A DNA stretch of 64,000 nucleotides from a gamma proteobacterium HTCC2207 (GTDB taxonomy: Bacteria; Pseudomonadota; Gammaproteobacteria; Pseudomonadales; Porticoccaceae), in the NCBI GenBank assembly GCA_000153445.1, contig CH672399.1, forward strand, positions 175,580-239,579, written 5' to 3'. Under the pieces are notes generated by a model. It had not been told where the DNA came from. It did no database searches and was given only the letters and a program-made list of their open reading frames with translations. The position numbers and the translations under genes are program-made. Below, in pieces: positions 22,736-64,000 of the stretch (its first letter is position 1; every line of letters starts with the position of its first letter).

Positions 22736-25582
22736 TTAGTGACGCGCGTCTTTTAATAAGCCTTGCTGCTGCTTATCGAAAGATTTTTGTCGCGCCTGCC
22801 AGTTTGAGGGCTGAGTAACCTTGCTAAGCTGCACGGCGGTGACCTTGTACTCTGGGCAGTTAGTGGCCCAGTCACTATTGTCTGTGGTGATTACATTGGC
22901 ACCGGAAACTGGATGGTGGAATGTAGTGTAGACAACGCCGGGTTTTACTCTATCGGTCACATCGGCACGCAATACAGTGTCTCCCACTCGACTATTGATA
23001 CCCACCCAATCACCATGATTAATACCGCGTTCTTCGGCATCATGGGGATGAATTTCGATTAGGTCTTCGCCGTGCCACTCGCTGTTGTCAGTGCGTCGGG
23101 TTTGGGCACCTACATTGTATTGAGAGAGTATCCGCCCGGTCGTAAGCAGCAGTGGGAACTTGCGATTAGCACGCTCGGTAGTGGCCACATATTCGGTCAT
23201 GGCAAAAAAGCCTTTGCCGCGGACAAACTGGTCCACATGCATAATTGGCGTACCCTCTGGAGTGCTGTCATTGCACGGCCACTGAATGCTGCCCAGCTGC
23301 TCTAACCGATCGTAAGAGACGCCGTTAAAAGTAGGGGTTAGGCGAGCAATCTCATCCATAATATCTGACGGATGGCTGTACTCCATTTTGCAGCCGAGAG
23401 CGTTGGCCAGGGCCATGGTGCCCTCCCAGTCAGCTTTGCCACTGAGTGGCGGCATCACTTTTCGCACTCTTGAGATTCTGCGCTCGGCATTGGTAAAGGT
23501 GCCGTCTTTTTCTAAGAATGACGCGCCGGGCAAAAACACATGGGCAAATTTGGCGGTCTCATTAAGAAAGATATCCTGAACAACCAAGCATTCAATCGAT
23601 CGCAGTGCAGCTTCTACATGTTGGGTGTTGGGATCGGATTGGGCTATATCTTCACCCTGACAATAGAGACCTTTAAACTCGCCATCTAGGGCTGCGTCAA
23701 ACATATTGGGAATACGCAAGCCGGGCTCTGAATCCAGAGTGACGCCCCACTCCCCTTCAAATAGGTCGCGAGTGGCTTTGTCAGAGATATGACGATAGCC
23801 GGGCAACTCATGGGGGAATGACCCCATATCGCAGGAGCCCTGAACATTGTTTTGTCCACGCAGTGGGTTGACACCTACGCCGTCGCGACCAATATTGCCG
23901 GTGAGCATGGCGAGATTAGCAATACCCATTACTGCGGTTGAGCCCTGACTGTGTTCGGTGACACCCAAGCCGTAGAAAATAGCGCCATTGCCACCAGTGG
24001 CATAGAGTCTTGCGGCGGCTCTTAGATCAGCTGCCGAAACACCGGTGATAGTTTCGGTATTTTCCGGTGAATGACGCTCGTCACCAATAAAGGCCACCCA
24101 CTTTTCAAATTCAGCCACGTCACAGCGATCGGCAATATACTCGCGAGCTTCAAGACCTTCGTTGACCACTACATGGGCCAAGGCATTAAGCAGCGTCACA
24201 TTGGTACCAGGACGCACAGGCAGATGGTAGTCGGCGGTAATATGCGGCGAGCTGACCAATTCAATCTTGCGAGGGTCTATAACAATCAGTTTGGCGCCTT
24301 CACGGAGGCGGCGTTTTAGACGCGAACCAAATACCGGATGAGCTTCGGTTGGGTTGGCACCCATCACAATCACCACATCGGCATCGGCAACTGAGGCAAA
24401 GGTTTGAGTACCAGCAGACTCACCGAGGGTGGTTTTCAAACCAAAACCGGTGGGTGAATGGCAGACCCGCGCACAGGTATCCACATTATTATTGCCAAAG
24501 CCCGCACGAACCATTTTTTGCACTAAGTAAACTTCTTCATTGGTGCAACGGCTTGATGAGATAGCGCCAATGCTGGTGCGACCATATTGTGCCTGAATAG
24601 CTTTAAACCTTTTTGCGGTATAGGTTACCGCCTCTTCCCAAGACACTTCGCGCCAGGGATCATCGATGCTATCGCGAATCATAGGTACCGTTATACGGTC
24701 TTTGTGAGTCGCATAACCAAAGGCAAAGCGGCCTTTAACGCAGGCATGACCTTCATTGGCCTTGCCGTCTTTGTAAGGGGTCATACGTACCACTTGGCTG
24801 CCTTTCATCTCCGCCTTAAAGGAGCAACCAACTCCGCAGTAGGCACAGGTGGTAGTCACTGAATGCTCGGGCTTACCCGCTTCAATAATACTTTTTTCGG
24901 TCAGGGTTGCAGTGGGGCAGGCATTGACGCAGGCACCGCAGGACACACATTCAGAATCCATAAAGTCTTCCGCCTGACTAGCGCTGACTTTGGATTCAAA
25001 ACCACGACCATCAATAGTCAGGGCAAAAGTGCCCTGCACTTCCTCACAGGCGCGTACGCAGCGTGAGCAGACGATGCACTTGGAGGGGTCGAAGGTAAAA
25101 TAGGGGTTGGACTCGTCTTTCTCGGCAACCAAATGGTTTTCACCTTCAAAACCATAACGCACCGAACGCAGGCCCAGCTCGCCGGCAGTATCTTGCAGTT
25201 CGCAGTCGCCGTTAGTGGGGCACGTTAAACAGTCGAGGGGATGATCGGAGATATACAGCTCCATCACATTGCGGCGCAGTTTGCCGATTTCATCTGACTG
25301 GGTTTTGACTTCCATACCCGCTTCCACATTAGTGGTACAGGATACAGGGAATCCTCGACGGCCCTCAATCTCTACAAGGCAAACGCGGCAAGAGCCAAAG
25401 GATTTAAGTTGGTCAGTGGCACAGAGGCGGGGAATTTTTACGCCGCTCTCGGCGGCAGCGCGCATCACCGAGGTGCCCTCTGGGACTGTCACCTCAACGC
25501 CATCAATACTCAGGGTCACCATATTGGTGCTAGTGCTTTTGGGGGTGCCGTAATCTGCCTGGGGTTCGTAGAATTCCAACAT
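22736..25582 (-). CDS. fdsA: NAD-dependent formate dehydrogenase alpha subunit FdsA
   Basis: This catalytic subunit oxidises formate to CO2 at a molybdenum bis-MGD centre. The start is the ATG at 25582 (MLEFYEPQADYG, 948 residues), one base after the fdsB stop; the longer frame to 25654 lies in fdsB. From the N-terminus it carries a [2Fe-2S] domain (CATDQLKSFGSCRVC), a His-Cys3 [4Fe-4S] site (HPLDCLTCPTNGDC), two ferredoxin-type clusters (CIVCSRCVRAC and CVSCGACVNAC), one more in CAYCGVGC, then the molybdopterin domain. The catalytic residue is cysteine in VDTCARVCHSP, not selenocysteine, as no in-frame TGA occurs. Confidence 0.95.
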   Translation of the reverse strand: MLEFYEPQADYGTPKSTSTNMVTLSIDGVEVTVPEGTSVMRAAAESGVKIPRLCATDQLKSFGSCRVCLVEIEGRRGFPVSCTTNVEAGMEVKTQSDEIGKLRRNVMELYISDHPLDCLTCPTNGDCELQDTAGELGLRSVRYGFEGENHLVAEKDESNPYFTFDPSKCIVCSRCVRACEEVQGTFALTIDGRGFESKVSASQAEDFMDSECVSCGACVNACPTATLTEKSIIEAGKPEHSVTTTCAYCGVGCSFKAEMKGSQVVRMTPYKDGKANEGHACVKGRFAFGYATHKDRITVPMIRDSIDDPWREVSWEEAVTYTAKRFKAIQAQYGRTSIGAISSSRCTNEEVYLVQKMVRAGFGNNNVDTCARVCHSPTGFGLKTTLGESAGTQTFASVADADVVIVMGANPTEAHPVFGSRLKRRLREGAKLIVIDPRKIELVSSPHITADYHLPVRPGTNVTLLNALAHVVVNEGLEAREYIADRCDVAEFEKWVAFIGDERHSPENTETITGVSAADLRAAARLYATGGNGAIFYGLGVTEHSQGSTAVMGIANLAMLTGNIGRDGVGVNPLRGQNNVQGSCDMGSFPHELPGYRHISDKATRDLFEGEWGVTLDSEPGLRIPNMFDAALDGEFKGLYCQGEDIAQSDPNTQHVEAALRSIECLVVQDIFLNETAKFAHVFLPGASFLEKDGTFTNAERRISRVRKVMPPLSGKADWEGTMALANALGCKMEYSHPSDIMDEIARLTPTFNGVSYDRLEQLGSIQWPCNDSTPEGTPIMHVDQFVRGKGFFAMTEYVATTERANRKFPLLLTTGRILSQYNVGAQTRRTDNSEWHGEDLIEIHPHDAEERGINHGDWVGINSRVGDTVLRADVTDRVKPGVVYTTFHHPVSGANVITTDNSDWATNCPEYKVTAVQLSKVTQPSNWQARQKSFDKQQQGLLKDARH

Positions 25583-25583
25583 G

Positions 25584-27131
25584 TTAATGTTCTCCCTGAG
25601 CAGCGCCAGCGGCGTCCCGTAATAAAAAGTCATTAGGAAAATGGGCAAGTGCACTGCGCACCGGATAGGGCGTCATACCCCCCATCGCACAGAGCGAGCC
25701 AAACTCCATAGTGTCGCAAAGTTCATGCAGCAGAATTAAATTATTGTCGCGGTTCTCATTGGCAACAATGCGGTCAATCACTTCAACACCGCGCACCGAA
25801 CCAATTCGACAAGGTGTGCATTTACCGCAAGATTCCACCACACAAAACTCCATGGCGAATCTAGCCTGAGCAGCCATATCTGCAGTGTCGTCAAAGACCA
25901 CAATACCGCCATGGCCAATCATAGCTTTGATGGCAGCAAAGGCTTCGTAGTCCATAGGCGTATCCCATTGAGACTCGGGTAAAAATGCGCCCAGTGGCCC
26001 GCCCACCTGAATAGCCCGGATCGGCCGGCCGCTATAAGTGCCCTGCCCGTAGTCTTCCACTACTTCGCGCAATGTCACACCAAAGGCCAATTCAATTAGA
26101 CCACCGCGTTTAATATTGCCCGCAAGCTGAATGGCTAATGTGCCTCTTGAGCGGCCCATACCAAAGTTCTGATAGCTGTCTGCGCCCTGCTCCAAGATAG
26201 TTGAAATCGCCGCTAGGGTGAGTACATTGTTCACCACGGTTGGCATACCGAATAAGCCTTCAATGGCGGGCAGTGGTGGCTTGGCGCGAACCATTCCACG
26301 CTTGCCCTCAAGACTCTCTAGCAATGAGGTTTCTTCACCGCAGATATAGGCACCAGCACCCAAGCGCACTTCGAGATAGAAGGTTTTGCCCGAACCTTGG
26401 ATATTCTCACCGAGAAAGTTCGCTGCGATAGCTCGGTCGATGGCGATATTTAATAATTTATGAGCCACAGGATATTCCGAACGCAGGTAGATATAGCCTT
26501 GGGTCGCACCCACTGCTAGCCCGGCGACAATCATGCCTTCAATTAGCTGATAGGGATCTGCCTCCATCACTAAACGGTCGGCAAAGGTTCCCGAGTCACC
26601 TTCATCAGCATTACAAACTATGTATTTTTGACAGCCATCCTTGCCAGCATCATGCACTGTTTGCCACTTAATGCCTGCGGGAAATGCTGCACCCCCGCGA
26701 CCACGCAGACCTGAGTCTTTAACCTGATCAACAATCTGCTGACCGGTCATTTTCAGGGCGTTGTTAAGACCTTTAAAGCCGTTTAAAGCCTGATAGTTAT
26801 CCAGACAAACCGGATCACCCAAACCAGCACGACTATAGGTCAGGCGCTGCTGGGATTTAAAATAGGGAATGTCTGCCACTTCACCCTGATACAGGGTATG
26901 TCTAGCTGGATCTGATTCCAGCGCGTCGACAATACTGGGGATATCCTTGGCGGTTACCGGGCCAAAGCCTATACGACCCTTATTAGTTTCGACTTCCAAT
27001 AACGGCTCTAGCCAAAACATGCCGCGGGAGCCACTGCGCACCGGCTCTATGCCGACACTTTGCAATGCACTGGCTACAGCGTCAGCGCCCAGGGCTAATG
27101 CAGTGGTATCCTGTGGAATATAAAATGTCAT
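25584..27131 (-). CDS. fdsB: Formate dehydrogenase beta subunit FdsB (NuoF-like, NAD and FMN binding)
   Basis: FdsB passes electrons from formate to NAD. The 515-residue protein has an N-terminal thioredoxin-like segment, as in FdsB/HoxF, then GLRGRGGAAFPAGIKW (NADH/FMN site), GAGAYICGEETSLLESLEG (FMN) and the C-terminal cluster motif ESCGKCTPCRIG. It overlaps fdsG by 4 bases and fdsA follows after 1 base. Confidence 0.95.
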   Translation of the reverse strand: MTFYIPQDTTALALGADAVASALQSVGIEPVRSGSRGMFWLEPLLEVETNKGRIGFGPVTAKDIPSIVDALESDPARHTLYQGEVADIPYFKSQQRLTYSRAGLGDPVCLDNYQALNGFKGLNNALKMTGQQIVDQVKDSGLRGRGGAAFPAGIKWQTVHDAGKDGCQKYIVCNADEGDSGTFADRLVMEADPYQLIEGMIVAGLAVGATQGYIYLRSEYPVAHKLLNIAIDRAIAANFLGENIQGSGKTFYLEVRLGAGAYICGEETSLLESLEGKRGMVRAKPPLPAIEGLFGMPTVVNNVLTLAAISTILEQGADSYQNFGMGRSRGTLAIQLAGNIKRGGLIELAFGVTLREVVEDYGQGTYSGRPIRAIQVGGPLGAFLPESQWDTPMDYEAFAAIKAMIGHGGIVVFDDTADMAAQARFAMEFCVVESCGKCTPCRIGSVRGVEVIDRIVANENRDNNLILLHELCDTMEFGSLCAMGGMTPYPVRSALAHFPNDFLLRDAAGAAQGEH

Positions 27132-54592: not shown

Positions 54593-54669
54593 GCACCCGT
54601 AGCTCAGCTGGATAGAGTAGGTGGCTTCGAACCACTTGGTCGGGGGTTCGAATCCCTCCGGGTGCACCA
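54593..54669 (+). tRNA. tRNA-Arg (TCG), insertion site of the mobile element
   Basis: The 77-nt cloverleaf has acceptor stem GCACCCG/CGGGTGC, anticodon loop CTTCGAA (anticodon TCG), T-loop GGTTCGAATCC and encoded CCA. The last 14 bases (from 54656) are also the start of the 80-bp inverted repeat around the recombinase gene, which shows that the element uses the tRNA 3' end as its attachment site. The tRNA itself stays intact. Confidence 0.97.
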
Positions 54670-54735
54670 TTTTTATTGGTAACCCATTGTTTTCCTTGTG
54701 TATTATTCCAATTACACAGGTAGGGTAGACAATGC
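54656..54735 (+). repeat. Inverted repeat A, left copy (contains attL and recombinase start)
   Basis: This 80-bp segment starts inside the tRNA 3' end (CTCCGGGTGCACCAT) and runs to one base past the ATG of the recombinase (ACAATGC). It is an exact reverse complement of 55887-55966 (80 of 80 bases). It contains the palindrome TGTGTA-N10-TACACA and one GGTAGAC motif. Confidence 0.95.
54697..54718. promoter_or_regulatory. Palindrome upstream of the recombinase (possible operator or arm site)
   Basis: TGTGTA and TACACA stand 10 bases apart, 13 bases before the recombinase ATG. The spacing and symmetry suit a dimeric repressor or an excision factor. GGTAGAC follows at 54724-54730, and the same heptamer occurs twice in repeat B (60932 and 60944), suggesting recombinase arm-binding sites. 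Confidence 0.5.
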
Positions 54736-55883
54736 GGTATACACAAAAGCATCCCCAACACACTTACATCAAACGTGATGTGTATTACTTTTCAAGGGTA
54801 ATACCTAGTGATTTAAAGCATCACTACAGCAAATCTCGCATCATTCAGAGTCTCAAGACCAAGTCAGCGCGCAGAGCTACTGTTGCATCCAAGATGCTTT
54901 CAGCAAAGCTGGATGATTATTGGTTAGGCTTAAGACTCAAACAAGTAGATGTTCCTGCATCTCATTTGCTGGTCAGTGGCGCTACTGTAAACCTTGAATC
55001 AAACCTCCCAACTATTGATGAAGCACTAGAAACATATCTACGTATTAAAGGACGTGGTAAGTCTGACCTGTTCTTTAGTCACACCAAACGCTCAATTAAA
55101 TACCTTACAGATTGTTTAGGCTCTCGCTCTTTAGACCAATACACTTCAGCTGATGCTGCACAATTAAGAGACTGGTTTGTCTTACGAGGTTTAGCCATTG
55201 CATCGATAAAACGTAACTTTGGCTCTATTAAAGCGGTGGTTAACTTTGTCATCCTTGAGCAAGGACTAACATGTAGTAACCCATTTAATGGCGTTTATCT
55301 TCATTCAGATAACTCATCTAAAAAACGTAGGCCTATTGCCACCAATAACCTAAAAGCTATCCAAGCTAAATGCTTGGAATTAGATGATGACTTAAGGCAT
55401 CTTGTATCGTTAATTAGTGATACTGGCATGAGATTGTCAGAAGCAACAGGCTTAATGAAGTCAGACATTAACCTTGATTGTGATTATCCGCATATTGTCA
55501 TTACGCCCTACCCTCACAGGTCGTTAAAAACACTATCCAGCGAGCGTATTGTTCCATTAGTTGGACAGTCTCTTTGGGCAGCTAAACGGATTATAGGAAC
55601 TTCAACATCTGTCTATTCCTTCCCTCGCTACACATCTAGCTCGAGATGTAATGCTAACTCTGCTAGTGCAGCTATTAATAAATGGATTAAGACAGTAGCT
55701 GACTCTGATGCGGTTATACATGGTTTGCGTCATAGCTTTAGAGACAGGCTAAGAGCAGTAGAAGCACCATCAGAAGTAATTGACCAGCTAGGTGGTTGGA
55801 GCTTAAAGACTGTAGGACAAGGATATGGAGATGGTTACAGCGTAGAGATTCTTAGTAAGTGGCTAGAGAAGATTGTCATCTAA
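54732..55883 (+). CDS. Tyrosine recombinase (integrase) of the element
   Basis: The 383-residue protein has an N-terminal arm-binding region of the DUF6538 type (YIKRDVYYFSRVIPSDLKHH), a core-binding SAM-like domain and a catalytic domain with all expected residues: arginine in DTGMRLSEATG, lysine in SLKTLSSERIVPL, HGLRHSFRDRL, GGWSL and the nucleophile tyrosine in GQGYGDGY. Its ATG (54732-54734) lies within repeat A; the stop codon (55881-55883) is only 3 bases before the inverted copy. So the gene sits exactly between the repeats, and either orientation would keep an ATG and the same upstream sequence. Confidence 0.92.
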   Translation: MRYTQKHPQHTYIKRDVYYFSRVIPSDLKHHYSKSRIIQSLKTKSARRATVASKMLSAKLDDYWLGLRLKQVDVPASHLLVSGATVNLESNLPTIDEALETYLRIKGRGKSDLFFSHTKRSIKYLTDCLGSRSLDQYTSADAAQLRDWFVLRGLAIASIKRNFGSIKAVVNFVILEQGLTCSNPFNGVYLHSDNSSKKRRPIATNNLKAIQAKCLELDDDLRHLVSLISDTGMRLSEATGLMKSDINLDCDYPHIVITPYPHRSLKTLSSERIVPLVGQSLWAAKRIIGTSTSVYSFPRYTSSSRCNANSASAAINKWIKTVADSDAVIHGLRHSFRDRLRAVEAPSEVIDQLGGWSLKTVGQGYGDGYSVEILSKWLEKIVI

Positions 55884-55886
55884 CGG

Positions 55887-55966
55887 GCATTGTCTACCCT
55901 ACCTGTGTAATTGGAATAATACACAAGGAAAACAATGGGTTACCAATAAAAATGGTGCACCCGGAG
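55887..55966 (-). repeat. Inverted repeat A, right copy
   Basis: This is the exact reverse complement of 54656-54735, including a 14-base piece of the tRNA-Arg end (ending GGTGCACCCGGAG). It begins 3 bases after the recombinase stop codon. Ten bases (TGCCGATTAG) separate it from repeat B. Confidence 0.95.
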
Positions 55967-55976
55967 TGCCGATTAG

Positions 55977-56198
55977 TGCCTTAGATAGGCACCTACAACA
56001 CCCTTGAGCCTTGTGTTTACTGATGTTGACAGCCCTTCAGTTCATTGTCAAAGGCACACCCACGTCTACCATTTTGTCTACCATCAGACTGACACAAAGC
56101 GCCCCTTGAGTAATTGTGTGCCTGATAATCCTTTAGAGGGGCGGGAGGGGCTACGGTGACATGGGATTGTTACTGTACCTGCGTGGATACTTTAAAAG
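55977..56198 (+). repeat. Inverted repeat B, left copy
   Basis: This 222-bp segment (starting TGCCTTAGATAGGCACC and ending GGATACTTTAAAAG) is the exact reverse complement of 60816-61037, checked base by base. It contains two GTCTACC heptamers, the complement of GGTAGAC. No open frame of note lies in it. Confidence 0.95.
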
Positions 56199-56638
56199 TG
56201 AATTTACTTGCTGGCTAGAATAAGAATAACTACATATTTTAGAGTTTCACTTTAGCGGCATTTGGAACATAATGCCGTTCGCTATGTCCAATCATTAAAT
56301 ATTAACTACTAAACAAATTTCTGTGCCTATGCACGGTATGCTTAGCTCGCTATGCCAGCATATCTGGTAGTGTAATTACTTTTGAAAAGGTCAAATAAAG
56401 CTTCACCTAAACGGCCGTAGGTCGTGCTTTGACGCTCTAGCGCAGCATTGATAAAGATGGCTTAGCAGGCTATATCGCCTTCTGCTGAGGCTTGTAGTGC
56501 AAGGGCAACAGTGACTGTAAAAATCCGGTGAATTTTGGTTCCGCGGATAGACGGTTGTTGTTAAAAAATAGGTAGGTTCATAGCCGTTTTAGTTTGCCAA
56601 ACAGTAGTTCAAGCCTTATATAATTTAGGATGTATGCC
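56199..56638. other. Non-coding stretch at the left end of the cargo
   Basis: This 440-bp region has no convincing frame. It holds a hairpin (CGGCATT / AATGCCG, around 56254-56276) and several GC-rich short palindromes such as GGCCGTAGGTCG, which stand out in AT-rich DNA. It may hold the promoter of the membrane-protein gene or a structured RNA; neither is shown by sequence alone. Confidence 0.4.
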
Positions 56639-57106
56639 ATGAACAATCTCTCAGAAGAAGAGATGGACGCTCTTTTATCCTTTGAGGAGGTAAACACTTC
56701 CGACTGGATAAGACTAAAGCGCAAAATATTTTTTCGCCTATGGGTGGCTTTCGTACTTACGTGTATAAGAGTTGCGTATATGATTTACAGCCCTCAAACC
56801 TATAGCATGATAGTCTACCAAAACGCAGATTCCGGTACTGATGATTTAGTGACTTTGGCTTATGGCCGGCTTTTCTTAGGTTTTCTGTTCTTTTTCGTAT
56901 CCTTGTATGCCTTAAAAAATAATCTTTATCTTAGGTCCATATCTATGGCTGGCGTGGTGATAGTTTTCGCGCTCTTTTGGTCAGACTTGCAAGTTTATAT
57001 TATCGGCGGGTTTTCACAGTTTACGGCTGAAGCGCTCACTTTTTTGATTCTGCGCCTGTGGATGATTTACCTTATTACTGCAAACTATTTTGATATCAGA
57101 CGTTGA
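56639..57106 (+). CDS. Small membrane protein of the element, function unknown
   Basis: The start is ATG 56639 (MNNLSEEEMDALLSFEEVN), 8 bases after AGGA; an ATG 9 bases earlier is overlapped by that site. The 155-residue protein has an acidic soluble N-terminus (about 25 residues), then four hydrophobic helices with short loops (WVAFVLTCIRVAYMIY, LFLGFLFFFVSLYAL, ISMAGVVIVFALFW, LTFLILRLWMIYLI). No family is recognised. Confidence 0.65.
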   Translation: MNNLSEEEMDALLSFEEVNTSDWIRLKRKIFFRLWVAFVLTCIRVAYMIYSPQTYSMIVYQNADSGTDDLVTLAYGRLFLGFLFFFVSLYALKNNLYLRSISMAGVVIVFALFWSDLQVYIIGGFSQFTAEALTFLILRLWMIYLITANYFDIRR

Positions 57107-57843
57107 TTGGCATAAACCACCTAATTATTATCTTGTTTCTCAAGACTTTGGGTTCCGTCAGTCTCGTGCGCTCCATACCTTAAAAAAGTAAATGTCTCTC
57201 TAAATAACAAAAAAAAGATACGCTTATCCATTTGATAAGCCAGTCGTTTTTAAATTTTGCTATACGGCATTATTTTGGCAATGCGACTTAATGATTTAAC
57301 TTAGCATTGACTGCCACATGGGGCTTTAGGAGACACTTAAAGAGGCCAAAATATACTTACATGCTCGAGTGTGAGTATCCAGAATGGTGCCTATTTAAGG
57401 CCTATTTACACCCACTTCTACACCTGTTTATTCAGGCCTTCCTGAGCCCTCACAGAAAGCTACACAAGGGCGTTAACCCTCTGTTCTGCATGCATACTAG
57501 GCTGTTTTTAATGCCCTTTAGAAGCCTCTTGAGCTGCCTTCTGAGCGACCTGCGCCAGCCCCTTTTATTTACCTTATCGCCGCATGGTAGTCTTATGCGA
57601 TAATGAATTATAATTACAGCGATGTTGATTAAAACTAAGAGTTATCACTGAATAATATCCTTAAAGGTATAACTACTAAGTAACAGAGATAGGTAGTCTC
57701 TGGGCATAGCTAGGTAGGCTCTAAGCCCTATGCATACCAAAGTTAAGTAACTAATGGTTATCAATAATGATGGTCTTTAAAAGGTACAGCAATTAAGTAA
57801 CAACCATAACTAGCCTACAGAGGCAGCAGGTACCGTAAGCCCT
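57107..57843. other. Non-coding stretch with a duplicated leader before the polymerase-like gene
   Basis: This 737-bp region lacks a convincing gene; a frame at 57307-57603 begins only at TTG and is low-complexity. Its right third is an imperfect direct repeat of about 110 bp (57657 onwards and 57775 onwards) that includes the start of the next gene. Confidence 0.55.
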
Positions 57844-57860
57844 ATGCATACCAAAGTTAA
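57657..57860 (+). repeat. Direct repeat spanning the start of the polymerase-like gene
   Basis: TAAGCCCTATGCATACCAAA and the next five bases occur identically at 57722-57746 and 57836-57860, 114 bp apart, in longer imperfect copies. The first copy has its own ATG at 57730 and codes MHTKVK followed by a stop; the second is the true gene start (MHTKVNQS). Confidence 0.8.
57730..57750 (+). CDS. Possible six-codon leader ORF (duplicated N-terminus)
   Basis: ATG at 57730 codes MHTKVK and a TAA stop, a truncated copy of the polymerase-like gene's start. It may be a passive result of the repeat or a leader peptide; no evidence for translation is visible. Confidence 0.2.
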   Translation: MHTKVK

Positions 57861-59091
57861 CCAATCTACAGCCAAACTGTGGGACTTACTTGATAGTTTA
57901 AAGCTGCCTGATGATGATTACTCCAATCACACCTTCTTTAGGCCATTGGTAGTCCATAAAAGTAGCCCTAAATATGACTATGCTAATGAGCTTATTGAAA
58001 GCTTTGTAGCTAGGTCAAATACAAAGCAGAGAGGCGCCAAACAGCTAGCTGAGTTCAAAAGGCATTGGCAGTATATGCTGATGAACCTATGCTCCGTATC
58101 GTTTCAAAGACGCTGGTTATTAGTCTCTCTTGATAAGAATGAATACTCCAATGACCATTGGTTAAAGCTACAAGGCCTTTCCTATGGCCTTACAAAAGAA
58201 ATAGTAAGCTATCTCGTCACTACGGGAATGATTGAGCTAAAACTAGGTAAGCGTTACGAGAACAATCCTGCAAGAACTAGGCTTTTCCCTACTCCGAAAT
58301 TAGCTAACGTTCTCTACAGTCTTTTTTTCTTCATTGAGGAGGATATTAAGCCTCCTTACTTAAGAATTAATGAAGGAGAGGGTAACTGGACAAGCACTAT
58401 TTTGTCATTGCCGGATGACCACCCTGAAGTAATAGAGATGACAACCATCAATGAGTTCCTTAAAGGTCATTCTTGGGCTTGTAAGGCGCCTGTGCGTCTT
58501 GTCTACAAGAGTAATGCTTTTAATGGAGGAAGGTTATCCACGCCTTTCCAGAACCTACCTGATAGAAACGTGAGGATCAGGATAAACACTTTGATTGATG
58601 AACAGCCCATTTGTGAAGTTGATTTTAATGCTAATCACCTTAGGCTTAATTTAGCTTTTAGGTCTAAAGAGAGCGCAGGTGACACTCCCTATGAAGACAT
58701 TGGTGAAATAGCAGGAGTAAATAATCGAGACCAAATAAAAAGAATCATTACGGTTGCTATGGGTGCTTCTGATGAGGCCGGTGGGTACGGTTCTTTGTAT
58801 ACCGAAGGCTTTAATAAAGCTTATGTTCGAAGAATCCATGATGCAGCATTAAAGCGTTTCCCTAAGCTTCAGTTGTTTAAAGGTTGGGGAGTCTATGCTC
58901 AGAACTTTGAAGGACAAATACTCAAAGATGTAATGCTTCAGGGTGTAAAGAAAGACATAGTCTGCTTACCAGTACATGACGCAGTAGCTGTGCAACAGCA
59001 ACATCAAGCGTGGGCTAAGGAAGTCATGCTAGACACTTGGCAGCGGTATATGGATGGTGTGAAGACTAGGGTTAAGGTGGATATGCCTTAG
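57844..59091 (+). CDS. Small family-A-polymerase-like protein (TV-Pol type), possible replication protein of the element
   Basis: The 415-residue protein has an N-terminal 200-residue region of no recognised fold and a C-terminal half that resembles the palm and fingers of family A DNA polymerases: GGRLSTPFQNLP (228-239), motif A EVDFNANHLRLNL (258-270, D260), the NRDQIKR segment (294-300, with the fingers lysine), YAQNFEGQILKDVML and motif C LPVHDAVAV (HD at 378-379, where most polymerases have HDE). It lacks exonuclease and 5'-nuclease domains. Similar compact family-A proteins (TV-Pol) have been described in mobile elements and are predicted to prime and copy DNA. That assignment is from motif reading only. 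Confidence 0.7.
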   Translation: MHTKVNQSTAKLWDLLDSLKLPDDDYSNHTFFRPLVVHKSSPKYDYANELIESFVARSNTKQRGAKQLAEFKRHWQYMLMNLCSVSFQRRWLLVSLDKNEYSNDHWLKLQGLSYGLTKEIVSYLVTTGMIELKLGKRYENNPARTRLFPTPKLANVLYSLFFFIEEDIKPPYLRINEGEGNWTSTILSLPDDHPEVIEMTTINEFLKGHSWACKAPVRLVYKSNAFNGGRLSTPFQNLPDRNVRIRINTLIDEQPICEVDFNANHLRLNLAFRSKESAGDTPYEDIGEIAGVNNRDQIKRIITVAMGASDEAGGYGSLYTEGFNKAYVRRIHDAALKRFPKLQLFKGWGVYAQNFEGQILKDVMLQGVKKDIVCLPVHDAVAVQQQHQAWAKEVMLDTWQRYMDGVKTRVKVDMP

Positions 59092-59212
59092 GCTGGTTAC
59101 CCTGCGAGGCTAGGTTATAAAGGTTACTTGTTGTTCTTCTAGAGGTTCTTTAGTTCCTCTATTACGGGAAACAGGTTCGTTTAATGTTTGGATCAAAAGG
59201 AAATAGAGAGTT

Positions 59213-59482
59213 ATGAGTAGAGATGAGCCTTTCGATATCATGCGTTTTCTTCATTGGGTGACTTTAGTGCTGCCACCCGCTTTGTACCTGTATTTCTCTG
59301 AAGCCCCTTTTTATTGGTGGTTCTTTTTATATGCGGCTTGGTTTACTGCTATGTGCATATATGTGGGTGTCGATTATAGTGTAGGAAAGCTAACCGATCT
59401 TAGCTACACAGTTAGTCAGTTAGAGGCTAAGTTAGAAAGCATGGAAGATACGCTCAATGACATTAGAAACAATCAGTCTTAA
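59213..59482 (+). CDS. Small membrane protein with coiled-coil tail
   Basis: The 89-residue protein has two hydrophobic helices (WVTLVLPPALYLYF and WWFFLYAAWFTAMCIYVGV) and a C-terminal coiled coil (VSQLEAKLESMEDTLNDIR). It resembles small anchor or holin-like proteins only in shape. It starts 121 bp after the polymerase-like gene and is transcribed in the same direction. Confidence 0.65.
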   Translation: MSRDEPFDIMRFLHWVTLVLPPALYLYFSEAPFYWWFFLYAAWFTAMCIYVGVDYSVGKLTDLSYTVSQLEAKLESMEDTLNDIRNNQS

Positions 59483-59567
59483 CGCTCATTGGCAGACCTC
59501 CCTAATCAGCAAAGCTAAATGGGCTTGTTAACATTAGGGCTAGTAGTAGTTTTTTCATTTAGTGTTG

Positions 59568-59732
59568 CTATGGTTGCTCATCGCTCTCTTCGTTTTCAGC
59601 AGGATTATCCTCCCTGAAAGCCTTTCTTCCTATCATTTCAGGGTCGATACCCTTATAGCCTAGGTACAAACTTAGTGTGATACCGAGAACCATCAGTGCC
59701 ATCAGTACCAGCATGGAATAGACTTCGCTCAT
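59568..59732 (-). CDS. Small membrane protein, 54 residues, downstream of the Sel1 gene
   Basis: This ORF codes one hydrophobic helix (SMLVLMALMVLGITLSLYLG) and an acidic, charged tail (EDNPAENEESDEQP). AAGG lies about 9 bases before the ATG at 59732, and the gene starts 11 bp after the Sel1 stop codon, so the two form a small operon. No family is recognised. It is short enough to be missed by common cut-offs. Confidence 0.6.
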   Translation of the reverse strand: MSEVYSMLVLMALMVLGITLSLYLGYKGIDPEMIGRKAFREDNPAENEESDEQP

Positions 59733-59743
59733 TTCGTTAAACC

Positions 59744-60712
59744 TTAATCACAATCTTTGTAGTTAGACTCATAGCACGTGGCTGCTAGGGCTTGGCCATC
59801 AGCTATCTGCTGCGGTGTCATGTCAGACTTGAGTATGTCGATGTTAGTTGCAGCGCCTGTGTCACCTTGTGTCTTTGCCATAGAAAACCAAACGTAAGCG
59901 CGAATACTGTTCTCTGGCACACCTTTGCCAGTGCCATACATAAAACCTAGCTTACTCTGAGCATCTGCGCGACCTTGAGCAGCAGCCTTTCTGAACCACT
60001 TAACAGCCTCAGCATCGTTCTCAGGAACACCTAAGCCATCGGCATACATATAACCTAGGTTGTACTGAGCATCTGCATCACCTTGCTCAGCAGCCTTTCT
60101 GTACCACTTAACAGCCTCAGCACCGTTCTCTGGAACACCGTCGCCATCGGCATACATAAGACCTAGATTGTACTGAGCCCTGACATCACCTTGGCCAGCA
60201 GCCTTTCTATACCACTTAACAGCCTCAGCAGCGCTCTCCGGAACACCTTCGCCAGTGCGATACATATTACCTAGGTTGTACTGAGCCGCTGCATAACCTT
60301 GGTCAGCAGCCTTTTTAAACCACTTAACAGCCTCAGTACCGCTCTCAGGAACACCTAAGCCATCGGCATACATATAACCTAGGGTGTACTGAGCATCTGC
60401 ATCACCTTGGTCAGCAGCCTTTTTAAACCACTTAACAGCCTCAGTACCGCTCTCAGGAACACCTAAGCCATCGGCATACATATAACCTAGGGTGTACTGA
60501 GCATCTGCATCACCTTGGTCAGCAGCCTTTTTAAACCACTTAACAGCCTCAGTACCGTTCTCTGGAACACCGTCGCCATCGGCATACATAACACCTAGGT
60601 TGTACTGAGCCGTAGCCACACCTTGCTCAGCAAGCGCCTTAGTCTCATCAAATTCAGACGCAGCAGCACTTTGAAAAGCCAGTAAAGCAGTAAGGATTAG
60701 AATTAGTCGCAT
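59744..60712 (-). CDS. Secreted Sel1-repeat protein
   Basis: The 322-residue protein has a signal peptide (LILILTALLAFQSAAAS) and seven Sel1-like repeats of 36 residues (pattern AQYNLGxMYADGxGVPENxxEAVKWFKKAADQG). Two adjacent units (60301-60408 and 60409-60516) are identical over all 108 bases, so the array expanded recently. Sel1 arrays bind proteins or peptides, often at the cell envelope. The C-terminal 45 residues are a non-repeat cap with two cysteines. Confidence 0.88.
   Translation of the reverse strand: MRLILILTALLAFQSAAASEFDETKALAEQGVATAQYNLGVMYADGDGVPENGTEAVKWFKKAADQGDADAQYTLGYMYADGLGVPESGTEAVKWFKKAADQGDADAQYTLGYMYADGLGVPESGTEAVKWFKKAADQGYAAAQYNLGNMYRTGEGVPESAAEAVKWYRKAAGQGDVRAQYNLGLMYADGDGVPENGAEAVKWYRKAAEQGDADAQYNLGYMYADGLGVPENDAEAVKWFRKAAAQGRADAQSKLGFMYGTGKGVPENSIRAYVWFSMAKTQGDTGAATNIDILKSDMTPQQIADGQALAATCYESNYKDCD
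60301..60516. repeat. Two identical 108-bp units inside the Sel1 gene
   Basis: Positions 60301-60408 and 60409-60516 are identical base for base. The other repeats in the gene differ at several bases per unit. Confidence 0.9.
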
Positions 60713-60815
60713 GGAGCATTAACCTTTGCTAATTAATGCATCAACTATATAGAACAGGCGGAGTTATTCAAGGATGACTAGGTGCTGTCGAATGAGCAGC
60801 TTTTTTTGAAATGGG

Positions 60816-61037
60816 CTTTTAAAGTATCCACGCAGGTACAGTAACAATCCCATGTCACCGTAGCCCCTCCCGCCCCTCTAAAGGATTATCAGGCACACAA
60901 TTACTCAAGGGGCGCTTTGTGTCAGTCTGATGGTAGACAAAATGGTAGACGTGGGTGTGCCTTTGACAATGAACTGAAGGGCTGTCAACATCAGTAAACA
61001 CAAGGCTCAAGGGTGTTGTAGGTGCCTATCTAAGGCA
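60816..61037 (-). repeat. Inverted repeat B, right copy
   Basis: This is the exact reverse complement of 55977-56198 over 222 bases. Reading in the plus direction it contains GGTAGAC at 60932 and 60944, the same heptamer found in repeat A next to the recombinase. Confidence 0.95.
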
Positions 61038-61060
61038 ATGATTGGTCTTCTGGGCACCAT
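61038..61060 (+). other. Probable diverged right attachment site (attR)
   Basis: Directly after repeat B, ATGATTGGTC followed by TTCTGGGCACCAT can be aligned with the spacer and tRNA end found at the inner junction (CTAATCGGCA, then CTCCGGGTGCACCAT). About 16 of 25 positions agree, with a two-base gap, and the ending GGGCACCAT is the closest match. It may be a decayed copy of the tRNA 3' end, the usual right boundary of a tRNA-integrated element. Confidence 0.45.
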
Positions 61061-61296: not shown

Positions 61297-63552
61297 TTAA
61301 TTAAAACTCGGATCCATCTGCCCTTTCAGACAGCCCATAATGTAGGGATAACCATCGGTAATAAAATACCCATTCACGCCGTTCACCTGCATACCATTAC
61401 ATTCATCGAGGTCACCCAGATCCTCAATATATTCATAGTCATCTCTGTAGGTGCCGTCATAGTCCCCAATGGGTGTGGCGTAACCGGATACGGCCTGACG
61501 TGTGCCGCTCTTGATTCTATAGCTGGGCAGGGCTTTTCGCACAGTGCCATTATCATCAAACCAACTTCCAAAGATTGGAAAACCATCAGCAGCAAAGCCT
61601 ACCAGTGGCGACTCCACGGCGGTATCCGCGGCGAACATCGCGTTCGGCGTACCATGATAATGATAACTGCCATTGGGCTGGACATGAGCATTGTGGCTGT
61701 CGACTCTAAAACCATTAGCTGGGAACATAGGATCAAACCGCCATGGCTGTGACATATCGCCACAACCGGTTTTTTCATCGCCAACCGCAAAACAGGCCGC
61801 GGCGAGCAGATCGACTTTGACACCATTCAACATAAGTCCATTGTCACTGCCAATTGCCAGTGCGGTGCTGGAAGTGGCAAACACAGGGCTAGTAGTAACC
61901 TGATAGTTATAGTTTTGCTCACTGAGATTATTTGGAAAACTCTGCTGACCATCATTAAAATCATGATTGGGCACACCGTTTGACTGCAGCTGACATTTTC
62001 CTGCGCTGGCCGAAATGGTTAGATTTCCGGAAAATAGCACCGAGCGAAAAACATCCATAGCGGTCGACTGGTAGCTGGCAATATAGTCTTCACAGTTAGC
62101 GCTGCGTTGGGTGAATATCTCTCCGGTAATGTCAATCGCCACTGTCTCGCCATCTCCACCCCTGTCCGTATCGCGAATCATTGTAGCCACAGAGGCTAGC
62201 CCTTCGACAATGCTTGAGTAGTTGCTGGAGCCGTCCAGTAAATTGCTAGTCTCAAGCGGATCATCGACTAAATCGTAGAGTTGTTGCTGACCATCTAGGG
62301 TGGTAATCAACTTGTATTGACGGTCACGGATTGCCCAGCCAGACACCGAGTCACCCTCAAAATCACTGTAGACATAATCTCGTTGATCAGCATCGACGTT
62401 ACTCAGCAAGCCTTTAAAGCTCTGACTGTCCTCTACCGCAGTTACACCGCTCCCGGCCAAATTGGCGATGGTGGCGAAAAAATCACTGCTATTAATCAGC
62501 GCGCTTTCACGAACATTCTGTCGCGACACACCGGCCCCTGACACCACCATGGGCACCCGCAGCCCACCTTCCATCAAACTGCCTTTGCTACCACTCCCAT
62601 AGACTGAGCGATCGACCACCCGCCCCGGAGTTCCATTGTCGCCAATATAGAGAATAATCGTGTTGCTTAACTCGGCCTCGGTCATAGCCCCAAGCAAACG
62701 GCCAATCTCTGTGTCCATAGCTTCAATGGCTGCAAGGTAATAGGCTCGTGGATTGGCCGCAATATCAGCCTCAGTCCCAGCCAATGTCTGTGTATGAAGC
62801 CCTGCAGGCGGCAGATGAAAAGGACTGTGGGGTGCCACATAGGCGAGCCACATAAACCACGGCTGAGTCTGGTCATCAATCCAGTCAATCGCCAAGTCGG
62901 TTATGGCGCTGCTGTGATACTGAGTCGATACACTGGTCTCGCCATTAATGGTGAGATCCCATTCCGCGTAATCGCTAATTGCCCCGCGCAGATTACCGGC
63001 AAAGTAATCGACACCCACACTGGAAGGGTGATTCGCATCTGCTGGTATGCCGCTAAGGTGCCACTTGCCAATCACAGCAGATTGATAGTTGTCGGTATTT
63101 TCATCGCTAGAGAGAAACTGTTGCAGAGTCACGGCATCAGCGGGCAATTTATCACCCACATCAAGCACCCCAGAATTGATGCCATACTGGCCAGTAATCA
63201 TCGTGCTACGCGTTGTGGTACAGGCCGGTGTCGCCCAGGCATTATCAAAAACAATGCCGTTAGACGCTAGCTGATTAAGCGTCGGGGTCACAGGCAGATC
63301 TGAGCTAACAGCATATTGTGCAGAGGCATCGATGCCCTGATCGTCGGCAATAATCAATAGAATATTTGGCTGATCTGAGACTGAGCCATGGCTAGAGTTA
63401 TTACTGCTGTCATCCTCAACAACAGGGTCAGTAACATCAGGGTCAGAGTCAGTTATTTGATTCCCAGAAACACCGCCTCCACCACTTCCTCCACCACAAC
63501 CGAGCAACAAAAGTGACAATAGAAATACGCTTAACAGATCTGGCTTTAGCAT
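61297..63552 (-). CDS. Lipoprotein sulfatase fused to a C-terminal YHYH domain
   Basis: The 751-residue protein has a lipobox (LLLLGC, C19), a Gly/Ser/Asp-rich linker, a sulfatase domain of about 60-480 with metal-binding IADDQG (68-73), ACTTTRSTMITGQYG (candidate formylglycine cysteine C111), and YIGDNGTPG, and a C-terminal domain with GSYHYHGTPN (YHYH family). The sulfatase consensus is C-x-P/A-x-R; here the third position is threonine. The YHYH domain is often found in secreted proteins and may bind metal. The fusion suggests an outer-membrane enzyme acting on sulfated polysaccharide. Confidence 0.88.
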   Translation of the reverse strand: MLKPDLLSVFLLSLLLLGCGGGSGGGGVSGNQITDSDPDVTDPVVEDDSSNNSSHGSVSDQPNILLIIADDQGIDASAQYAVSSDLPVTPTLNQLASNGIVFDNAWATPACTTTRSTMITGQYGINSGVLDVGDKLPADAVTLQQFLSSDENTDNYQSAVIGKWHLSGIPADANHPSSVGVDYFAGNLRGAISDYAEWDLTINGETSVSTQYHSSAITDLAIDWIDDQTQPWFMWLAYVAPHSPFHLPPAGLHTQTLAGTEADIAANPRAYYLAAIEAMDTEIGRLLGAMTEAELSNTIILYIGDNGTPGRVVDRSVYGSGSKGSLMEGGLRVPMVVSGAGVSRQNVRESALINSSDFFATIANLAGSGVTAVEDSQSFKGLLSNVDADQRDYVYSDFEGDSVSGWAIRDRQYKLITTLDGQQQLYDLVDDPLETSNLLDGSSNYSSIVEGLASVATMIRDTDRGGDGETVAIDITGEIFTQRSANCEDYIASYQSTAMDVFRSVLFSGNLTISASAGKCQLQSNGVPNHDFNDGQQSFPNNLSEQNYNYQVTTSPVFATSSTALAIGSDNGLMLNGVKVDLLAAACFAVGDEKTGCGDMSQPWRFDPMFPANGFRVDSHNAHVQPNGSYHYHGTPNAMFAADTAVESPLVGFAADGFPIFGSWFDDNGTVRKALPSYRIKSGTRQAVSGYATPIGDYDGTYRDDYEYIEDLGDLDECNGMQVNGVNGYFITDGYPYIMGCLKGQMDPSFN

Positions 63553-63745
63553 GAATTATCCTTGCGATAAAAGGTGACTATTATTTTTTATTTAGCGAAT
63601 TAACGTCATGGCCCGTATTTGGTTGACCTACCAGCTAGATTAGAACCAATACAAATATCAGCCGGCAGAATTTCAAAAATTCAAGCGCAACGATGATGCG
63701 GGCCTGTTAATAGGCTCAGTAATTAGATGACTATTTAGAAGGATA

Positions 63746-64000
63746 TTAGTCGACTTGGATCGCCATTTTTGCGGCGCGCTGACGCAGTGCAAATTTCTGC
63801 ACCTTGCCTGTAGAGGTCTTGAGAATGGGTTCAAAAACATAGTGCCGTGGAACTTTAAAGCCGGCCATATGTTGTCGACACCAACGATCTAAATCTTCGC
63901 TACTGAGTTGTGCACCTTCAATAACCTCAATAAAAGCACAGGGCGTTTCTCCCCACTTTTTATCCGGCATGGCAACTACCGCGGCGAAACTTACAGCGGC
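63746..64000 (-). CDS. Acyl-CoA synthetase (AMP-binding family), C-terminal part, continues beyond window
   Basis: The frame is open to the last base of the window, giving about 84 C-terminal residues. AAVSFAAVVAMPDKKWGETP and the ending LKTSTGKVQKFALRQRA match the C-terminal lid domain of fatty-acyl/medium-chain acyl-CoA ligases, where the lysine of TGKVQK takes part in adenylation. The rest of the gene lies to the right. The substrate cannot be decided from this part. Confidence 0.85.
   Translation of the reverse strand, partial: AAVSFAAVVAMPDKKWGETPCAFIEVIEGAQLSSEDLDRWCRQHMAGFKVPRHYVFEPILKTSTGKVQKFALRQRAAKMAIQVD

What the first reader, a model, noticed from the sequence alone, without database searches (positions are those of the whole stretch)
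54656..61060. Mobile element made of two back-to-back perfect inverted-repeat modules
At the 3' end of tRNA-Arg(TCG), an 80-bp perfect inverted repeat encloses only the recombinase, and 10 bp later a 222-bp perfect inverted repeat encloses 4.6 kb of cargo. Ordinary tRNA-integrated islands have direct, not inverted, end repeats. Perfect identity means either recent formation or active upkeep by recombination. The layout suggests two independently invertible segments, recombinase and cargo, giving up to four arrangements. A technical cause (chimera from whole-genome amplification or misassembly) must also be excluded.
Basis: partly seen in the sequence, partly recalled or inferred. Interest (0 to 1): 0.92.

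Follow-up and report, generated by a model that had tools for sequence, protein, structure and literature searches.

The report
Mobile element with spare reversed attachment site
This stretch of a marine bacterium's chromosome is a mobile element lodged in a tRNA gene that carries, besides two ordinary end sites, what looks like a third complete attachment site in reverse orientation; many relatives share the layout, so it is a stable design rather than a sequencing accident.

Summary
Observation confirmed to the base: an 80-bp perfect inverted repeat encloses only the DUF6538 tyrosine integrase; 10 bp on, a 222-bp perfect inverted repeat encloses 4.6 kb of cargo. It is no artefact: of 36 related integrase loci examined, 31 have inverted arms of 90-100% identity around the integrase, including the complete Ruegeria TM1040 megaplasmid. 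In 5 of 6 elements with both repeats, the junction between the modules equals an intact attP: one flank as in attR, the other as in attL, with a shared core. The window keeps this at attL and the junction; its attR is of tRNA-Leu type because its genome exchanged flanks between two such elements. So the element reads attL-int-attP(inverted)-cargo-attR, and its excised circle should carry two inverted attP copies. Arms within an element are 97-100% identical, between elements 49-97%: upkeep, not recency. The integrase points away from the tRNA in 28 of 28, against free inversion; cargo occurs in both orientations in few comparisons. Excision, inversion and cargo exchange are inferred; no experiment was done.

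The parts
54593..54669 (+). tRNA-Arg(TCG), target gene; its last 14 nt (54656-54669) are part of the core and of IR1
   Evidence: ARAGORN; IR1 overlap
54656..54735 (+). attL: core plus P arm (IR1 left arm, 80 bp, runs to the integrase start codon; candidate integrase arm site GTAGAC at 54725 and GTATAC 12 bp on)
   Evidence: arm sites are inference
54732..55883 (+). tyrosine integrase, 383 aa, DUF6538 + Phage_integrase; R234, K266, H330, R333, W356, Y365 invariant in 9 relatives (catalytic roles recalled)
55887..55966 (-). IR1 right arm, perfect inverted copy of attL core and P arm
55887..56198 (-). site M: complete attP (P' arm - core - P arm when read on the minus strand) in inverted orientation inside the element
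   Evidence: three-site comparison
55977..56198 (+). IR2 left arm (P' arm), 222 bp exact; GTCTAC pair 12 bp apart at 56064 and 56076
56630..57106 (+). cargo ORF, 158 aa, looks membrane-bound, no family above cut-off
57844..59091 (+). cargo gene, 415 aa, PHROG 4756 (unknown function); possible family A polymerase-like fold, weak
   Evidence: no PDB sequence hit
59213..59482 (+). cargo ORF, 89 aa, no family above cut-off
59744..60712 (-). cargo gene, 322 aa, seven Sel1 repeats
60816..61037 (-). IR2 right arm (P' arm), exact inverted copy of 55977-56198
61038..61060 (+). attR core region, of tRNA-Leu(CAG) type, followed by DNA that in relatives lies downstream of tRNA-Leu(CAG)

Best explanation
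The region is an integrative mobile element of a family marked by a DUF6538 tyrosine integrase. Integrated it reads: tRNA - core - P arm (attL) - int - site M (P arm/core/P' arm in reverse: a complete attP) - cargo - P' arm - core (attR) - chromosome. Shown by sequence: the sites, their identity, their conservation. Inferred: the integrase excises the element at attL x attR; the circle then carries two identical attP copies in inverted orientation that part an integrase half from a cargo half, a layout like that of the yeast 2-micron plasmid. Integration uses the attP at the integrase's start, which in most elements has an extra candidate arm site, so the integrase always ends up pointing away from the tRNA and the second attP stays inside as M. 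Recombination between inverted copies, in the circle or between elements, flips or swaps cargo and keeps the arms identical. In this genome recombination between the tRNA-Arg and tRNA-Leu elements also exchanged their chromosome flanks, as an inversion would.
For: M equals attP in 5 of 6 complete elements. 31 of 36 loci have the inverted P arm, across integrases about 46% identical. Concerted arms: 97-100% within, 49-97% between six elements. int away from the tRNA in 28 of 28. A 12-bp-spaced pair of GTAGAC-like sites lies at L in 8 of 12 elements; M keeps one of the two in 6 of these 8, none in 1, both in 1. Same cargo (85% over 1279 aa) beside integrases 55-64% identical in G526. Cargo inverted between window and G044. 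Reciprocal flank exchange supported by synteny with three genomes. int DNA 97% identical between species whose mutS-ferredoxin region is 82.6%.
Against: No reads, no circle, no excision seen; no excisionase gene was recognised. 4 of 36 loci lack IR1 and one has only a 77% match. IR2 was not seen within 12-14 kb of M in L282, L297 and L301, so a cargo half with inverted P' arms is not universal. The opposite cargo orientations rest on comparisons sharing G044; the G526 pair has cargo in the same orientation. The arm sites are a motif inference; 4 of 12 elements lack the pair at L.
Confidence: 0.6

Rival explanations
1. Single-strand integration. The inverted attP copies let single-stranded element DNA fold on itself: int arms and cargo arms pair and rebuild a double-stranded attP at the foot of two loops, ready for the integrase before the second strand is made, as in phage CTXphi.
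For: CTXphi integrates as single strand through two inverted attP sites that pair (PMC5357621 passages). The arms stay complementary in element after element although their sequence drifts. M is continuous with both stems.
Against: No single-strand stage, relaxase or packaging gene was recognised. IR2 arms of 1148 and 3183 bp are far longer than a site needs. The two CTXphi sites are 90 nt apart, here over 1 kb. Complementarity follows from any upkeep of identity.
Confidence: 0.15
2. Ordinary tRNA island in which M is a non-functional by-product: a second attP copy captured once in an ancestor and kept identical only by host homologous recombination between nearby repeats.
For: attL and attR suffice for an ordinary cycle. 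int never lies reversed, 28 of 28. Gene conversion can keep short repeats alike.
Against: Conservation of the inverted arm in 31 of 36 loci over integrases about 46% identical, at tRNA-Arg, Leu, Ser, Phe and Thr genes, with the same end point near the integrase start and candidate arm sites, is unlikely for a useless copy.
Confidence: 0.14
3. Invertible switch: the element flips the integrase and cargo modules in place to change expression.
For: Geometry allows it. Cargo pieces lie in opposite orientation in window and G044, and a collagen-like gene in L013 and G044.
Against: Integrase module in one orientation in 28 of 28. IR1 contains the start codon and upstream region, so flipping int would change little in its expression.
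Confidence: 0.07
4. Technical artefact (amplification chimera or misassembly).
For: The genome is in 6 contigs and the repeat family could mislead an assembler; the flank exchange rests on this one assembly.
Against: The same layout with other arm sequences occurs in a complete megaplasmid, a single-contig genome (G526) and many independent assemblies. In 12 of the 36 loci the contig ends within about 130 bp beyond M, as real repeats cause in drafts. The two R junctions in G000 have distinct arms.
Confidence: 0.03

Closest known systems
tRNA-integrated genomic islands / integrative elements with a tyrosine integrase
   Same: integrase next to a tRNA gene, 3' end of the tRNA restored by the element, attL and attR as direct core repeats in 5 of 6 complete elements
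   Different: a third site, a complete attP, lies inside in reverse, so the integrase (and often the cargo) sits between inverted repeats
Yeast 2-micron plasmid (Flp/FRT)
   Same: the predicted circle has two inverted copies of the recombination site that part a recombinase half from the rest (2-micron layout recalled; PMC3147054 abstract seen)
   Different: integrates at tRNA genes; no autonomous replication, partition or amplification shown; the integrase is a phage-type protein
CTXphi-type elements (IMEX)
   Same: two inverted attP sites in one element (PMC5357621 passages)
   Different: own integrase rather than host Xer; tRNA rather than dif target; arms over 1 kb apart; no phage genes recognised
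pTN3-type archaeal integrases
   Same: tRNA-targeting integrase; chromosome inversions between tRNA loci; inversion between att sites in vitro (PMC5495485 abstract and section 12)
   Different: no internal inverted attP is described in what I read
Tycheposons
   Same: marine bacteria, tRNA border, tyrosine recombinase, cargo (PMC10872708 passages)
   Different: 'inverted repeat' does not occur in that paper; the primary paper was not read, so no detailed comparison
Engineered cassette exchange with inverted attP pairs (such as MiMIC)
   Same: cargo between inverted attP copies can be swapped (recalled; only listings seen)
   Different: man-made, serine integrase (recalled)

Membership tests
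tRNA-integrated element with tyrosine integrase | tyrosine integrase gene beside the tRNA | tested here: met
   Phage_integrase; tRNA-Arg 54593-54669
tRNA-integrated element with tyrosine integrase | direct core repeat at both ends (attL, attR) | tested here: inconclusive
   met in 5 of 6 complete elements; in the window R carries a tRNA-Leu-type core through flank exchange
tRNA-integrated element with tyrosine integrase | excises as a circle | not testable with these tools
   no reads
2-micron-like plasmid | two inverted recombination sites in the circular form | tested here: inconclusive
   follows from L, M and R in 5 of 6 elements, circle itself not seen
2-micron-like plasmid | autonomous replication and partition genes | tested here: inconclusive
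   none recognised; the 415-aa protein is at best weakly polymerase-like
CTXphi-type IMEX | uses host XerCD at dif | tested here: not met
   own integrase, tRNA target
CTXphi-type IMEX | single-strand integration through paired attP copies | not testable with these tools
   geometry allows it
Invertible switch (phase variation) | segment found in both orientations | tested here: inconclusive
   integrase half: no, 28 of 28 one way; cargo: yes in two comparisons sharing G044, no in G526
Tycheposon | defining features of the primary description | not tested
   primary paper not among those read

The most novel reading that the evidence does not exclude
A widespread, apparently undescribed family of bacterial integrative elements built from an integrase half and an exchangeable cargo half held between inverted attP copies. 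The double attP serves either as a natural cassette-exchange platform that swaps cargo such as restriction systems between tRNA loci and species, or lets single-stranded element DNA fold into a ready double-stranded attP.
Probability: 0.35. Interest if true: 0.93.

Novelty: new variant of a known kind. Interest (0 to 1): 0.84.

Why it matters
Integrated elements are usually delimited by two sites. Here a third, reversed attP is kept identical to the ends in Gammaproteobacteria and Alphaproteobacteria, which asks what it does. If it serves cargo exchange, it is a natural form of a trick that genetic engineers use; if it serves single-strand integration, it extends the CTXphi principle to tRNA islands. 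It also offers a concrete way in which chromosome arms are exchanged between tRNA genes, explains why draft assemblies break beside such integrases, and gives a search rule for cargo islands (type I restriction in TM1040; a kinase, phosphatase and VWA set in G302).

Tried and rejected
Artefact: rejected for the repeats (see rivals). Chance: rejected. Free inversion of the integrase module: rejected as a common event, 28 of 28 one way. Window R as a degenerate tRNA-Arg end: rejected; it is Leu type with a Leu flank. Restriction genes of TM1040 and L213 as proof of cargo inversion: dropped, the pair shows only short weak matches there among the rows printed (printed output partly cut). Searches that gave little: phages by DNA, where the 20 listed of 99 records match only in the tRNA region; polymerase-like protein in phages, none; integrase in plasmids, five records, one followed; TM1040 left half in plasmids, only its own record; polymerase-like profile in PDB sequences, none; its fold model is poor (mean pLDDT 58.5) and no Foldseek match reached E 0.001. 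PADLOC gave nothing useful on three window cargo proteins (one low-scoring Sel1/PtuA match).

Rows left out of the 36 loci: partial, frame-broken or contig-cut integrase rows, such as L035/L095, L036, L037, L039, L042, L043, L046, L212, L218, L273 and L274. The 36 are not independent (several share a genome). L218, frame-broken, shows a 17-nt exact inverted match at its contig start. Controls: nine loci of distant integrases screened for inverted repeats of at least 25 nt above 80%; none found, but one, L242, ends about 20 bp past the integrase and is not informative, so eight count. Tree: the 8 rows without repeats form one supported group (100/99), but the rows with repeats do not come out as one clade (4 changes), long branches are flagged and one row (L218) was badly translated; I use it for no more than that. 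In one search the DNA upstream of tRNA-Arg also had scattered weaker matches to the tRNA-Arg downstream regions (about 5 and 4 kb covered).

Papers: searches. No paper holds DUF6538. 'Inverted attP' gave 24 papers, 15 listed; by title mostly fly and insect work, none opened. That this layout is not in print rests on these searches of an open-access library alone. Seen: PMC5495485 abstract, outline and section 12; PMC5357621 passages; PMC3147054 abstract and outline; PMC10872708 passages; PMC13386836 passages; PMC12884075 one passage.
Full report
Observation. The two inverted repeats are as described, to the base. IR1 is 80 bp, 100% (54656-54735/55887-55966), and encloses a 383-aa tyrosine integrase with a DUF6538 domain. 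IR2 is 222 bp exact (55977-56198/60816-61037), starts 10 bp after IR1 and encloses 4617 bp. The longest exact inverted repeat in window 1-54000 is 15 nt. The last 14 nt of tRNA-Arg(TCG) lie in IR1.

Not an artefact, and not alone. The same genome holds a second element (contig C4, L013) with an integrase 59% identical and other arm sequences but the same plan: 82-bp IR1 at 100%, 262-bp IR2 at 99%, a collagen-like cargo gene. A third place (contig C3, L012) has IR2-like arms and cargo near tRNA-Leu(CAG) but no integrase; the genome holds two integrase copies only. In the genus, 12 of 50 genomes match the integrase profile at E <= 1e-40; in an even draw from the phylum 10 of 397, some of them distant kin; in the family of G346, 18 of 394 at E <= 1e-90. 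IR2-like arms occur in 20 of 94 relatives, all of the window's genus. The complete Ruegeria sp. TM1040 megaplasmid has tRNA-Phe, an 85-bp perfect IR1 around an integrase 46.5% identical, and a 1148-bp perfect IR2, with a BRO gene in each arm, around a type I restriction system. G526, a single-contig genome, has two copies with both repeats (IR2 686 and 729 bp), and G673 has an IR2 of 3183 bp at 100%.

Count. I examined 36 loci with flanks, not all independent. IR1 of 90% or more: 31. A 77% match: 1 (L285). None: 4 (L107 and L217, which end about 200 bp past int; L291, whose integrase holds a stop; L296). In several (for instance L282, L233, L301) IR1 encloses other genes besides int. A tRNA lay next to the integrase in 28; the integrase pointed away from it in 28 of 28. 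In 25 of the 27 with both a tRNA and IR1, 9-17 nt of the tRNA's 3' end lie in IR1. Both repeats in one locus: 6. Nine loci of more distant integrases had no such repeat; one of them (L242) is cut too close to be informative, so eight controls count.

What the repeats are. The three sites printed side by side for the six elements with both repeats show one rule in five: L = tRNA/core/P, R = P'/core/flank, and M, read in reverse, = P'/core/P. M is thus the attP that attL x attR recombination would make. (For L013 no tRNA was found at L.) The window keeps the rule at L and M, but its R has another core. That core and the flank behind it are those of tRNA-Leu(CAG) in other genomes, while the L012 element near tRNA-Leu has an R of tRNA-Arg type. 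Over tens of kilobases, DNA behind the window's R matches the tRNA-Leu downstream region of G041, G023 and G018 (about 24, 11 and 11 kb covered) and barely the tRNA-Arg region (1.0 and 1.3 kb, G023 and G018); DNA behind L012's R matches the tRNA-Arg region of G023 and G018 (15 and 12 kb) and barely the tRNA-Leu region (0 to 0.4 kb). Two elements of this kind have exchanged their chromosome flanks, as an inversion would; the places are on different contigs, so the inversion itself is inferred, and a misjoin in this one assembly is not formally excluded.

Upkeep rather than youth. In six elements L and M arms are 97-100% identical (2 differences in all, both in one element), while arms of different elements are 49-97%. 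Identity is therefore restored over time. At tRNA-Arg the integrase DNA of G000 and G044 is 97% identical against 82.6% for the mutS-ferredoxin region, so the integrase half probably moved recently between these species.

Modules. In G526 the same cargo (85% over 1279 aa, same orientation) sits beside integrases 55-64% identical in matched parts. Window and G044, both at tRNA-Arg, share cargo pieces in opposite orientation relative to M and R; a collagen-like gene is likewise inverted between L013 and G044. G044's cargo contig ends in the arm that I take for the M side, since its other end is the Arg-type R. Cargo thus appears to be exchanged and can lie either way, on few comparisons; the integrase half was never found reversed.

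Arm sites. GTAGAC/GTCTAC occurs as a pair 12 bp apart in the P' arm of six of ten elements looked at (window, L092, L093, L102, L215, L213), across integrases about 46% identical; L013 has one copy, L221 none, and in L090 and L233 the contig is cut in or before that arm. The window has 20 copies of the hexamer in all, and its only pairs at 12 bp are the two P' arms. At L, 8 of 12 elements have a pair at 12 bp with at most one mismatch per site; M keeps one of the two in 6 of these, none in 1, both in 1. I read these as integrase arm sites, and their partial loss at M as a possible reason for the fixed orientation; both are inference.

Mechanism. Shown: three att-like sites, M inverted, identity maintained, wide conservation, fixed int orientation, flank exchange in this assembly. 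Inferred: excision to a circle with two inverted attP copies, integration through the int-proximal copy, cargo flip or swap through M. The closest working likenesses are the 2-micron plasmid and engineered cassette exchange (both largely recalled; abstract, listings); CTXphi offers a single-strand alternative. An archaeal tRNA integrase that inverts DNA between att sites is known.

Cargo. The 415-aa protein belongs to PHROG 4756 and may have a family A polymerase-like fold: low-confidence model, best Foldseek matches POLRMT and Taq Pol I at E about 0.05, none below 0.001. Other cargo: type I restriction, an HNH-HIT fusion and Sel1 repeats in G044, kinase, PP2C and VWA genes in G302. Defence or stress functions are likely for some, unproven for the window.

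Limits. No reads and no experiment; unnamed relatives; IR2 is not universal (not seen within 12-14 kb beyond M in L282, L297 and L301); the literature check covers an open-access library only.

Noticed in passing
L009:7898-16558 (CACEBC010000003.1): A relative of the polymerase-like cargo protein (55%) sits behind tRNA-SeC between 27-bp direct repeats, so this cargo gene also rides an ordinary-looking island.
   Followed up: partly
window 62453-64000 versus L193 (G044:C5): 98.8% identity over 1548 bp between species whose mutS-ferredoxin region is 82.6% identical; G044 has a second, 82% similar copy on C40. Looks like recent transfer next to the element.
   Followed up: no
L233:428-4015: In G302 the integrase module itself holds a kinase-like, a PP2C-like and a VWA gene, all inside a 127-bp perfect inverted repeat beside tRNA-Arg.
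   Followed up: partly
L215:15231-16378 and 25527-26674: The TM1040 outer repeat carries the same BRO-family gene in both arms, identical over 1148 bp.
   Followed up: partly
L094 (G026:C7:2381-4981): Two attP-like sites in direct orientation about 2 kb apart, the second followed by a truncated integrase: a decayed or stacked array.
   Followed up: no
L012:4540-4644: A degenerate stretch like the inner end of a P' arm lies outside attR (43 nt, 79%), a hint of older modules behind the present one.
   Followed up: no
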